From: Thalassiosira profunda
Taxonomy: Eukaryota; Bacillariophyta; Thalassiosirophyceae; Thalassiosirales; Thalassiosiraceae
Direction: 5' to 3'
Assembly: GCA_036939355.1 (NCBI GenBank)
Contig: JALLAP010008082.1
Location: forward strand, 1 to 19,368
Length of the DNA stretch: 19,368 bases
The notes beneath the pieces were generated by a model that ran no database searches, was not told the origin of the DNA, and saw only the letters and a list, made by a program, of their open reading frames with translations. The position numbers and the translations under genes were made by a program. Position 1 is the first letter of the stretch, and every line of letters starts with the position of its first letter. Shown here piece after piece: positions 5,911 to 19,368 of the stretch.

Positions 5911-6334
5911 GATGCTGGTGCGGTTGGGTGATGGATAGGGCGGGCGGGTGCTAAGAGTGAGCGTGGCCGCGGGAAGGCGGGAAATGTGGCAAGATCTTTG
6001 GTTTGCTTGGGCGGGCGCAAAGATTTTGTGGATTGGTTATGAGCCCATCAACTCGGTGCACGAGCTTCCGCTGTGCTGCAAGCTTCGTTCAGCAAGGGAG
6101 ACAGTCACAATGACCTCCCGCCTTCTCTCCGTCTCTCACCAATCTGCCATGCTGCCAATGCGCCGAGCTGCTGAGCAGACCAATGACCCGATCGACATGA
6201 CTCCAACGACGACTCTTGCGCCTCTGCCTTCTTGCCCATTTGCACGCACTGCGCTGCCTTCCCAACATGCTAGGTACTGCTTGAGTTCACAATTCTTCTA
6301 CAGCTCCCACTCAAACAACTCTTCGACAGCAACA
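5911..6334. promoter_or_regulatory. Bidirectional upstream region with four CCAAT boxes
   Basis: This 424-bp spacer separates the divergent RNA-binding protein (-) and methyltransferase-like (+) genes. CCAAT occurs at 6139-6143, 6155-6159 and 6180-6184, and in inverted form (ATTGG) at 6032-6036. CCAAT boxes bind NF-Y in many eukaryotes; their use here is inferred. Although an open frame runs through this spacer into the gene at 6335, the protein upstream of 6335 shows no similarity and carries several possible starts, so the start was placed at the Met just before the hydrophobic anchor. Confidence 0.45.
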
Positions 6335-7512
6335 ATGCAACAGCGGCATCAAATCGTCCTTTCCGTCCTCGGCGTCGCGGCCTGGTCGGGGTTCCTCCTT
6401 GGAGGCCACAAGTCGTCTCCCGTCGATCAGGTCCGTCGTGCCCTACGCGTCGTCGACACGTCGAGCGCCGATCGCTTGGGCGGGCTGCGCGATCCCAAGA
6501 CGGTCGTCCACCGCCCCCACTCAGCCTTGGCCGCCTCCCTCCCCCCGCCCCAAGTGACGCCCAACGGCCATCCCGACTTCGAGTCCATCCTGGAGCAGTA
6601 CGTCCCCGCGAACGAGCGCAGTCACTACCTCATCAACATCGGGGCGCGCGACGGGAAGGAGCACGACCCGACGTACCCCCTCCTCGCCCGGGGGTACGAC
6701 GGCATCCTCTTCGAGGGCGACGACGAGGTGAAGGAGGCGCTGCACGCCAACGTCGCGGCGTTGGAGTCGAAGACGAAGCCCGCGATCTCGTGGGGCTTCC
6801 TCACTCCGGACACGGTGCTCGAGCGCCTCGCGGCCGGCGGGGCGCGGAAGGACGCGGACGTCTTCAAGGTGGACGTGGACTCGTTCGACGCCGNCAGATG
6901 GTAGAGTTCAACCCTGACATTGCCCCACCGTTGGCCTGGCGCCAGATGTACTCGCCCCACCCCTTCAAATTCGACAAGGTCGCCCTTGGCAACTATGGCG
7001 CCTCCGCTTCGGCTTGGCACCAAATCTTGACCGAGAAGTACGGCTTCGGTCTCGTGGCGATGGAGGTCGACGATCCTCGCGAGGGCTGTTCTCGTTGCGA
7101 GCACAACATGTGGTTCGTGTCTCCCGAGATCCTCGCGCGGCGGGGCCTCCGTCCCCACACCCACGAAGAGGTCACGTCGTTGTTCTGGGAGACCCACCAC
7201 GCCGCCCGTCGCGTCTATTGCCTCCACGCCCGGACGCCGTGCGGGCTGATGTGGCCCGCGGCCGTGACGGACGCGGTGCCAGGGGGTGTGGAGAAGTTGT
7301 CGCCGTTGCAGGCGAGGCTGAAGGTGTCGCTGGCGGTGACGGATCCGAATGCAGGCGCGGGGCTGCGGAAGGCGTACCACGATGCAGTGGTGGTCCCGTT
7401 CCTACAGCAGATGCGGAATGCGTGCAACTGCAAGACGTGCCAGGGAGGCGATCCATGCCTGAGCGAGTGGACCGTGGTGCAAAGCACGAGGGTCCAGGAG
7501 GCCACTGCCTGA
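6335..7512 (+). CDS. FkbM-like methyltransferase-type protein, type II membrane anchor (broken by an N)
   Basis: Predicted SAM-dependent methyltransferase-like protein, probably luminal in the secretory system. Residues 7-23 form a hydrophobic signal-anchor (QIVLSVLGVAAWSGFLLGG). NIGARDG at 101-107 fits the SAM-binding motif I, FEGD at 126-129 the acidic residue after strand 2, and FKVDVDSFDA near 176-185 the motif normally leading into a short variable stretch and then INPDIxPP. Here EFNPDIAPPLAWRQMY follows, but in another frame, just after the single N at 6894. The two halves clearly belong to one gene; the frame change and missing 15-20 residues point to an unresolved gap rather than a mutation. 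The C-terminal half has paired Cys (GCSRCEHNMWF; CNCKTCQGGDPC). It is convergent with the CCDC130-like gene. No restored join is proposed; acceptor substrate is unknown. Confidence 0.75.
6894..6894. other. Ambiguous base, probable collapsed assembly gap
   Basis: The only N in the window lies inside the methyltransferase-like coding region. Coding signal is strong on both sides, but the frame differs by one and a family-typical segment of roughly 15-20 residues is absent, so the N probably stands for several tens of unknown bases. Confidence 0.7.
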
Positions 7513-17874: not shown

Positions 17875-18178
17875 TATTCCACGCCCCGCTCGCCTACTCC
17901 TCACAATTGCTTGCGATGCCCTTTGCTCCCGATTCCTCTGCTTTGCTGCTCCCCTGCTTTTGCTCCCCGGGCGGGTGCGCGGTTCATGTCAGTCGCGCAA
18001 TTTATTTTTTTACGAGGAAAGTTAGGAGATTAGCTTGCGACTTGTTCCCCGACTCCAGAGAACAGACATCAAACAGCATCAAACCTCATCAAACATCCAT
18101 CCCGGCCGAAACATCAACCCGTGCGTCAACATCATCTCACCTCTTTGTCCACCCATCTCTCGTCGAGGACTGCGAAAC
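17875..18178. promoter_or_regulatory. Shared upstream region of armadillo (-) and selenoprotein-candidate (+) genes
   Basis: 304-bp head-to-head spacer. It contains a T-rich run (18001-18010, TTTATTTTTT) and the CATCAAAC repeats at 18067-18094. No other gene was recognised. Confidence 0.4.
18067..18094 (+). repeat. Three CATCAAAC repeats with 10-bp period
   Basis: CATCAAAC starts at 18067, 18077 and 18087 with exact 10-bp spacing, and a degenerate fourth copy (CATCAACC) lies at 18112. They sit about 85-110 bp before the start codon of the selenoprotein candidate, probably in its 5' UTR or promoter. Confidence 0.7.
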
Positions 18179-18557
18179 ATGTGCTGGAAGGATACTTGTG
18201 CCACGTGCGGCAAGGCCACTTGGGCCGGATGAGGCAAACACATCGACAGCGCTCTCCGCGGGGTGGCGGAGGAGGAGCGCTGTCCGGGTTGGCAGACGGG
18301 ACAGTGCACGGCGGGTGGGGGCGTCAGCAAGCACACGTGTCCGGAGTGCGGTGAGTGACAACTGTGCTTACTTGTTGACAAGTTGCTCGCATCCTCCTTG
18401 ATGTCCCATCAATTGAAACAACAACTCACTCCACGCAGGAATGGATATGCAGGCTAGCTCGGAGAAATTCTTAGGTGACGTGATTTCCGCGCACAAGAAG
18501 AAGGCGATGCTGATCGGGAAGAGCCAGTGCGAGAAGAAATTGGCCGGGGAAATCTAG
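18179..18557 (+). CDS. Candidate selenoprotein of the TCxxCxKxTWxGCGxH family
   Basis: Small Cys-rich protein of unknown, possibly redox or metal-binding, function. Exons are 18179-18350 and 18439-18557 (96 residues counting the recoded TGA). The first 17 codons read MCWKDTCATCGKATWAG, then TGA (18230-18232), then GKHIDSALRGVAEEERC. Related short eukaryotic proteins are recalled as TCxxCxKxTWxGCGxHVxxVxxxVPxxxRC, so the TGA stands exactly at the invariant Cys of GCG, and the following residues continue the family pattern. The frame stays open to a phase-1 intron (18351-18438, 88 nt, GTGAGT...CAG). The second exon continues GMDMQASSEKFLGDVISAHK and ends at TAG (18555-18557). A second CxxC (TCPEC) lies near the junction. 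With the SECIS-like hairpin after the stop, the simplest reading is selenocysteine. Alternatives are a nonsense mutation or base error (TGC to TGA). Confidence 0.85.
18230..18232 (+). other. In-frame TGA, predicted selenocysteine codon 18
   Basis: TGA interrupts the conserved WAGCGKH-type motif (WAG-TGA-GKH) at the position of the family cysteine. It lies 292 nt of spliced transcript upstream of the ATGA core of the hairpin at 18593-18665, which is beyond the minimum spacing needed by eukaryotic SECIS elements. Confidence 0.8.
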
Positions 18558-18592: not shown

Positions 18593-18665
18593 GCACATGA
18601 TTCCTTCGAATGACGCGAGATGCTGCAATCAATTTACAGCCTCGTCGAGAAGAAGGATTCTGTGC
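18593..18665 (+). promoter_or_regulatory. SECIS element (predicted) in 3' UTR
   Basis: Hairpin beginning 36 nt after the TAG stop. Lower helix: GCACA (18593-18597) with TGTGC (18661-18665), an internal loop, then TCCTTC (18602-18607) with GAAGGA (18652-18657). Core: ATGA at 18610-18613 opposite A-GA-A at 18648-18651, the tandem G.A quartet. Upper helix of 10 bp: CG 18614-18615 with 18646-18647, CGAG 18616-18619 with CTCG 18641-18644, GCTG 18622-18625 with CAGC 18637-18640, interrupted only by a 1-nt and a 2-nt bulge. Apical loop 18626-18636 has unpaired AA at 18627-18628, 13 nt after the ATGA. These are the defining parts of a eukaryotic SECIS, which recruits SBP2 and the Sec-specific elongation factor to decode UGA. 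Pairings were found by eye, without energy calculation. Confidence 0.8.
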
Positions 18666-18836: not shown

Positions 18837-19368
18837 CTAGGCATCGCACTGCACCATGATTTTGCTCAGCCTCGTCGAAACTGATTTCACATCCACGTTC
18901 TCCGGATACTGTTCGATTGTGTGCCTCGTCGCCTTCGGGGATAGCCATCGTGCCAGCTCCTTCGACAAAGCACTGTAGCCCCTCAGCACGTGACGAGGAT
19001 ATGCAGCGCACATTACCTCCTTTCGGAACTCATTGGCACTTTCGCCATCCTGGGGTGGCTGCCCTTCCACCAATCGATCGCACTCCTCCAGAAAGTCCCT
19101 CGCCGCATACCAAAGCAGCCGCTGATAATTGGGGAATTTGTACTCCTTCCCCACCTTCATCTGCCTCTCCAGACGATAAATGCCCAGCTGCATCTCGAGC
19201 GAATGCCGGTGAATGAAGTTCCCTCCAAAGACGAGGCTGTCCTCGGGGGTGGACACGGCGTGGATCCACCCGCTGGGGATGAAGAGAGTTTGGCCCTTCA
19301 ATACTGGCACCTCGTACACGGCCCCTCCTGCCGCGGTGATGACATCGGGCAAGAATTCGTACTTCGAC
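18837..19368 (-). CDS. JmjC-domain histone demethylase, KDM2/PHF8-like (C-terminal part, runs off right edge)
   Basis: C-terminal 176 residues of a JmjC Fe(II)/2-oxoglutarate dioxygenase; the N-terminal part with the first two iron ligands lies outside the window. Visible are the end of the jelly-roll, with KGQTLFIPSGWIHAVSTPED containing the third iron ligand His, and LVFGGNFIHRHSLEMQLGIY, typical of the KDM2/PHF8/JHDM1 branch, which removes methyl groups from histone H3 lysines. After it comes the helical segment FPNYQRLLWYAARDFLEECD seen in the same branch. The TAG stop is at 18837-18839. There is no chromatin-reader domain (PHD, CXXC) in the visible part. The gene is convergent with the selenoprotein candidate; their 3' ends are separated by 279 bp that includes the SECIS hairpin. 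Confidence 0.88.
   Translation of the reverse strand, partial: SKYEFLPDVITAAGGAVYEVPVLKGQTLFIPSGWIHAVSTPEDSLVFGGNFIHRHSLEMQLGIYRLERQMKVGKEYKFPNYQRLLWYAARDFLEECDRLVEGQPPQDGESANEFRKEVMCAAYPRHVLRGYSALSKELARWLSPKATRHTIEQYPENVDVKSVSTRLSKIMVQCDA

What the first reader, a model, noticed from the sequence alone, without database searches (positions are those of the whole stretch)
18179..18557. Cys-to-Sec replacement in a small conserved protein: likely undescribed selenoprotein
Seen: TGA at codon 18 lies inside an otherwise intact family motif (TCATCGKATWAG-TGA-GKH), at the position of the Cys found in relatives. The frame after TGA continues with family-like residues, crosses a phase-1 intron correctly and ends at TAG. 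Known: selenoproteins are usually recognised by TGA aligning with Cys in homologs, and many marine algae, notably pelagophytes, have large selenoproteomes. Inferred: the TGA is decoded as selenocysteine. I do not know of a selenoprotein described for this protein family.
Basis: partly seen in the sequence, partly recalled or inferred. Interest (0 to 1): 0.95.

Follow-up and report, generated by a model that had tools for sequence, protein, structure and literature searches.

The report
New algal selenoprotein, thiol-redox type
A small two-exon gene, probably of an alga, has a TGA stop codon where 52 of the 54 related proteins that show this site have a cysteine, and a sequence predicted to fold like the selenocysteine signal (SECIS) follows it, so the codon is likely read as selenocysteine, which would add a family to the known selenoproteins and mark the probable reactive residue of an unnamed protein family found in many actinobacteria.

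Summary
Exons 18179-18350 and 18439-18557 (88-nt GT-AG intron) encode 96 residues with one in-frame TGA at codon 18 (18230-18232). That codon aligns with Cys in 52 of 54 homologs showing the site (Trp in two) and in 102 of 102 ORFs of fetched bacterial and viral loci. That descriptor misses three known selenoprotein genes of this genome; a simpler one finds two of them. The genome has SecS, an eEFSec fragment, and SelW, GPx and SELENOU-like genes with TGA at their known Sec sites. tRNA-Sec and selenophosphate synthetase were not found. No Pfam or NCBIfam model reached its cut-off for the domain. Bacterial Cys relatives follow a CoA-disulfide-reductase-like gene in 28 of 80 loci; some other relatives are fused to BolA or thioredoxin. 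I read it as an undescribed selenoprotein with redox-active Sec beside a zinc ribbon (mechanism inferred).

The parts
18179..18350 (+). exon 1: CxxC...TWAG(U)GKH domain, predicted zinc ribbon
   Evidence: reading frame; homology
18230..18232 (+). in-frame TGA, codon 18, predicted selenocysteine
   Evidence: aligned residue is Cys in 52 of 54 proteins and in 102 of 102 ORFs of 82 fetched loci
18351..18438 (+). phase-1 GT-AG intron, 88 nt (predicted, no RNA reads)
   Evidence: three metagenomic homologs (P0008-P0010) become homologous at the same residue, preceded by unrelated residues
18439..18557 (+). exon 2: second CxxC...H...C module and stop TAG
18593..18665 (+). SECIS-like hairpin in the predicted 3' UTR; 35 nt separate it from the stop codon
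18610..18613 (+). AUGA, 5' side of the SECIS-like core
18627..18628 (+). apical AA of the SECIS-like hairpin
18647..18648 (+). GA, 3' side of the SECIS-like core

Best explanation
The in-frame TGA at 18230-18232 is likely decoded as selenocysteine, directed by a predicted SECIS hairpin at 18593-18665, in a small two-module protein whose relatives nearly always have cysteine there. Inferred mechanism: eEFSec and an SBP2-type protein (not searched for) would place Sec at codon 18 through the 3' UTR hairpin. Cys7, Cys10, Cys35 and Cys43 would bind zinc. Sec18, with the invariant His21 (motif TWAGUGxH), would be the reactive selenol in thiol, disulfide or persulfide exchange. Shown: the TGA, the frame, the aligned Cys, the hairpin sequence, SecS, the eEFSec fragment, and TGA in SelW, GPx and SELENOU-like genes. 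Predicted or inferred: decoding, splicing, metal binding and redox role.
For: Position 18 is Cys in 52 of 54 proteins that show it (Trp in 2) and in 102 of 102 ORFs of 82 fetched loci; the loci were fetched with patterns holding GCG, so most of that second count is biased. A strict SECIS descriptor gives one hit in the window, both strands, at 18610. Same descriptor, other loci of this genome: 12 hits in 181,098 nt, one as stable; 3000 shuffles of the 280-nt flank: 149 with any hit, 2 as stable. A core descriptor without the AA rule finds one hit in the 300 nt after the stop of this gene, of SelW and of SelU, none for GPx, against 21 of 768 pieces of 300 nt. SecS at two places. eEFSec C-terminal part (best PDB match 5izk, E 3.9e-71). 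TGA at CGG(U) of SelW, VVNVASK(U)GLTK of GPx and RRPG(U)VLCREE of SelU. 12 of 91 homologs start at the Met two codons after the site, 11 with the two-module build; 0 of 7 full-length two-module proteins have Met there, while 11 full-length one-module ones do (Fisher p 1e-5). Function: CoA-disulfide-reductase-like gene upstream in 28 of 80 bacterial loci, a thioredoxin-like cluster in 7 of 80, 10 BolA fusions and 1 thioredoxin fusion. Position 43 is Cys in 39 and His in 5 of 54; 18 is never His and 21 is always His.
Against: tRNA-Sec and selenophosphate synthetase were not found; completeness of the assembly is not given. Rfam found no SECIS here, nor in the SelW and GPx loci (the SelU locus was not given to it). 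My strict descriptor finds nothing in the 300 nt after SelW, SelU or GPx (0 of 3), so its sensitivity is not shown, and it was changed after a first version missed this candidate. The GPx flank has no core hit either. With GUGA cores also allowed, the core descriptor gave 71 hits in 206,952 nt (window included), 8 of them at -27.9 kcal/mol or lower, one being this candidate, i.e. about 0.1 hit per 300 nt. The folding energy alone is not exceptional (z -1.45; 18 of 200 shuffles as good). No DNA of a relative with TGA was obtained: conservation of TGA is inferred from truncated annotations. Residue 18 could be a zinc ligand.
Confidence: 0.88

Rival explanations
1. The TGA is a recent disabling mutation or a sequencing or assembly error in an ordinary Cys gene.
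For: One base separates TGA from TGC and TGT. It rests on one assembled contig.
Against: Frame, splice sites and exon 2 are intact and the part after TGA is conserved. 12 of 91 homologs start just after this codon. A SECIS-like hairpin follows. The genome has TGA at the Sec site of three known families.
Confidence: 0.07
2. TGA is reassigned to Trp or another residue throughout this genome.
For: Two homologs from other sources (P0017, P0036) carry Trp at this position.
Against: Among the own-genome family matches, TGA lies inside only a SelW and a GPx match, at the known Sec site; the SelU TGA lies just before the matched part, also at the known site. 52 of 54 homologs have Cys here.
Confidence: 0.01
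3. Sec is made, but Sec18 is a zinc ligand (C7, C10, U18, H21) with a structural rather than a redox role.
For: CxxC-x7-CxxH spacing is zinc-finger-like (recalled). The AlphaFold2 model of P0002 has a strand at 13-17, right before residue 18.
Against: Another ligand set exists: C35 is followed within 12 residues by Cys or His in 51 of 54 proteins and 101 of 102 ORFs, and at position 43 Cys and His exchange, whereas 18 is never His and 21 never Cys. Sec usually replaces catalytic Cys (recalled). No coordinates of the model were available to measure geometry.
Confidence: 0.2
4. Translation stops at the TGA to give a 17-residue peptide, and the rest is not made.
For: TGA is a stop by default.
Against: The part after TGA is conserved, 70% identity to P0005. 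In the reading the next Met is residue 59, so a restart would give only the last part.
Confidence: 0.02

Closest known systems
Eukaryotic selenoproteins with Cys homologs (SelW, GPx, SELENOU)
   Same: In-frame TGA at the position of a conserved Cys, in the same genome; SelW and SelU also have a SECIS-like core hairpin after the stop
   Different: The domain here matches no Pfam or NCBIfam model above its cut-off, hence none of those families
Algal selenoprotein catalogue of 42 families, including PDI_e, AhpC_b, SymSEP (PMC7539508; abstract, sections 5, 6 and 22 and passages read)
   Same: Algal Sec forms of families that are otherwise Cys-containing
   Different: The three new families there have thioredoxin-fold or AhpC domains; this one is a small Cys-rich protein. 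The family 'Hypo' there and hypothetical proteins 1-3 of Ostreococcus (PMC2375036, sections 8 and 11 and passages read) are not described in what I read, so identity with one of them is not excluded.
Actinobacterial TWAGCGxHI small proteins (unnamed, e.g. L032, L036)
   Same: Same N-terminal motif CxxC..TWxGCGxH..C
   Different: Cys instead of TGA, and no second CxxC..H module in the bacterial ones printed

Membership tests
Eukaryotic selenoprotein | in-frame TGA aligned with Cys of homologs | tested here: met
Eukaryotic selenoprotein | SECIS element (AUGA, apical AA, GA core) in the 3' UTR on the coding strand | tested here: met
   sequence and predicted fold present; own descriptor, which in its strict form misses 3 of 3 known selenoprotein genes of this genome; Rfam silent here and in two control loci; function untested
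Eukaryotic selenoprotein | Sec machinery in the genome | tested here: inconclusive
   SecS and an eEFSec fragment found, with SelW, GPx, SelU genes holding TGA; tRNA-Sec and SPS not found, PSTK not established, SBP2 not searched
Eukaryotic selenoprotein | TGA conserved at the same codon in other species | tested here: inconclusive
Eukaryotic selenoprotein | Sec present in the protein | not testable with these tools
   needs 75Se labelling or mass spectrometry
TWAGCGxH small-protein family (unnamed) | C7, C10, W15, G17, C18, G19, H21, C35 | tested here: met
   present here except that codon 18 is TGA
Any Pfam-A or NCBIfam family for this domain | score above curated cut-off | tested here: not met
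   Pfam: the window protein and 8 homologs, only BolA of the fusion P0061 above cut-off; best sub-threshold zf-Mss51, 21.5 of 27 bits, in P0013; NCBIfam: 6 homologs, none above cut-off

The most novel reading that the evidence does not exclude
A new eukaryotic selenoprotein family: a mini zinc-ribbon protein in which Sec sits in a UGxH dyad that takes sulfur or electrons from CoA-disulfide or persulfide reductases and thioredoxin. Its Cys-to-Sec exchange points to the catalytic residue of a whole unnamed actinobacterial and protist family.
Probability: 0.45. Interest if true: 0.75.

Novelty: new member of a known kind. Interest (0 to 1): 0.65.

Why it matters
New selenoprotein families are found rarely (recalled), and annotation tends to cut selenoproteins at TGA: 12 homologs here may be cut at exactly that point.

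Full report
What is there. The window is a whole contig (C1366) of a 21.8 Mb, 1366-contig assembly. On the plus strand 18179-18557 holds a two-exon gene: exon 1 18179-18350, 88-nt intron 18351-18438 with GTGAGT and ACGCAG ends, exon 2 18439-18557. It reads 96 residues with one in-frame TGA at codon 18. In the own genome the search found its two exons and one weak match at E 0.02.

Family. Three searches returned 9, 61 and 54 proteins, 91 distinct ones (P0002-P0092). At codon 18, 52 have Cys, 2 have Trp (P0017, P0036), 12 begin at the Met two codons downstream, 5 begin a little later, and the remaining 20 lack this part or are read from another frame or an intron. Among the 54 that show the site, C10, W15, G17, G19 and H21 are invariant. 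102 ORFs from 82 of these and the viral loci all have Cys at 18, but the fetching patterns contained GCG, so this count is biased. Named eukaryotic Cys members include Saprolegnia, Phytophthora and Peronospora. No Pfam or NCBIfam model reaches its cut-off for the domain.

Why the truncated homologs matter. Twelve proteins start at 'MHIDSAL' or its like, exactly two codons after the site, and 11 of them carry the second CxxC..H module seen in the window gene. Of 7 full-length two-module proteins none has Met at residue 20, whereas 11 full-length one-module proteins do (Fisher p 1e-5). The proteins are related, the second search was seeded with three of the truncated ones, and the contrast was formed after seeing the data, so the p-value is only a guide. 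A gene caller that treats TGA as stop would produce just this. P0007 is from Cyclostephanos tholiformis and P0005 is an MMETSP transcript ORF marked complete; P0006 (Thalassiosira rotula) starts at a later Met. Trp in P0017 and P0036 may be TGA translated with code 4 or a real TGG; I cannot tell.

SECIS. The flank GCACATGATTCCTTCGAATGACGCGAGATGCTGCAATCAATTTACAGCCTCGTCGAGAAGAAGGATTCTGTGC (18593-18665) folds into helix I, an AUGA/GA core, a helix II of 9 pairs with a 2-nt bulge and an apical loop with AA 13 nt after the AUGA. With a strict descriptor it is the only hit in 19.4 kb on both strands. In 181,098 nt of other loci of this genome (both strands, some overlapping) there were 12 hits, one of equal or better energy; in 3000 dinucleotide shuffles of the 280-nt flank, 149 had any hit and 2 an equally stable one. 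Against this: the descriptor was revised after its first form missed the candidate, and it finds nothing in the 300 nt after the stops of SelW, SelU or GPx. A simpler descriptor without the AA rule finds exactly one hit in the 300 nt after the stop of this gene, of SelW and of SelU, none for GPx, and hits in 21 of 768 pieces of 300 nt, those genes' own pieces included. A looser form of it that also takes GUGA gave 71 hits in 206,952 nt, 8 at -27.9 kcal/mol or lower, one being this candidate. So the element is likely, not proven.

The genome appears to decode Sec. SecS matches at two places. An ORF at the end of contig C1013 best matches the Sec-specific elongation factor 5izk (E 3.9e-71). In-frame TGA lies at the known Sec site of SelW (CGGU) and GPx and of a SELENOU-like gene; the sites are recalled. 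Not found: tRNA-Sec and selenophosphate synthetase. PSTK was not established and SBP2 was not searched. Completeness of the assembly is not given.

How it may work. Bacterial relatives have C35 followed by His three or four residues later (66 and 8 of 102) or Cys two residues later (26 of 102). The proteins of the three searches have Cys at position 43 in 39 of 54 and His in 5. A position that exchanges Cys and His, together with C7, C10 and C35, is what a zinc site shows. Residue 18 is never His and 21 never Cys. Hence I take residue 18 as the reactive thiol or selenol and His21 as its partner. Context agrees: 28 of 80 bacterial loci have, upstream on the same strand, a BLAST relative of the L032 flavoprotein, which is CoA-disulfide-reductase-like (TIGR03385 378 bits, below the cut-off of 579; Pyr_redox_2). 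Its C-terminal rhodanese domain is my reading, because the piece scanned was cut before it; a 29th locus has only that part. The 80 loci are related, so these are not 28 independent cases. L036 has a CsoR-type repressor domain (PF02583) after the flavoprotein, L032 a thioredoxin behind, and L052 a metallo-beta-lactamase-fold gene upstream. Ten homologs are fused to BolA and one to thioredoxin by their precomputed Pfam domains. AlphaFold2 gave P0002 a confident model (pLDDT 92.2, pTM 0.81) with no solved relative found. I had no coordinates, so ligand geometry is untested.

What is known. The algal survey PMC7539508 (abstract, sections 5, 6 and 22 and passages read) reports 42 families including three new ones; none is described as this protein in what I read, though 'Hypo' is not described. 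PMC2375036 (sections 8 and 11 and passages read) lists 16 selenoproteins of Thalassiosira pseudonana, none of this kind by name, and three undescribed hypothetical Ostreococcus proteins. PMC6627142 was only searched for terms. Supplements were not available. That this family is not in print as a selenoprotein rests on those readings and in an open-access library that lacks most subscription journals.

Verdict. The family appears new for selenoproteins. The redox and persulfide role is a reasoned inference (about 0.5).

Noticed in passing
L032, L036 and 26 other bacterial loci; L052: The Cys form sits behind a CoA-disulfide-reductase-like gene (28 of 80 loci), at times with a CsoR-type repressor or a thioredoxin; in L052 behind a metallo-beta-lactamase-fold gene: a possible sulfur or disulfide stress operon.
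   Followed up: partly
P0061-P0069 and P0088: Ten members with a BolA domain (nine with the full N-terminal motif); a BolA partner suggests a link to glutaredoxin and iron-sulfur handling (recalled).
   Followed up: no
L114, reverse strand: SELENOU-like gene with TGA in RRPG-TGA-VLCREE and a SECIS-like core hairpin 6 to 89 nt after the stop.
   Followed up: partly
G000:C266 and C517: Two SecS matches with nearly equal scores, perhaps alleles or a duplication.
   Followed up: no
window 18837-19367, minus strand: Open frame at the contig end that looks like part of a JmjC or cupin protein (recalled, not tested).
   Followed up: no
window 6894: The only ambiguous base of the window; frames 5948-6904 and 6790-7512 on the plus strand meet there, so one gene may be split by it.
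   Followed up: partly
window 17950-18011, plus strand: Sub-threshold Rfam match to anti-hemB (33.6 bits, gathering score 49.5), a bacterial RNA; probably chance.
   Followed up: no
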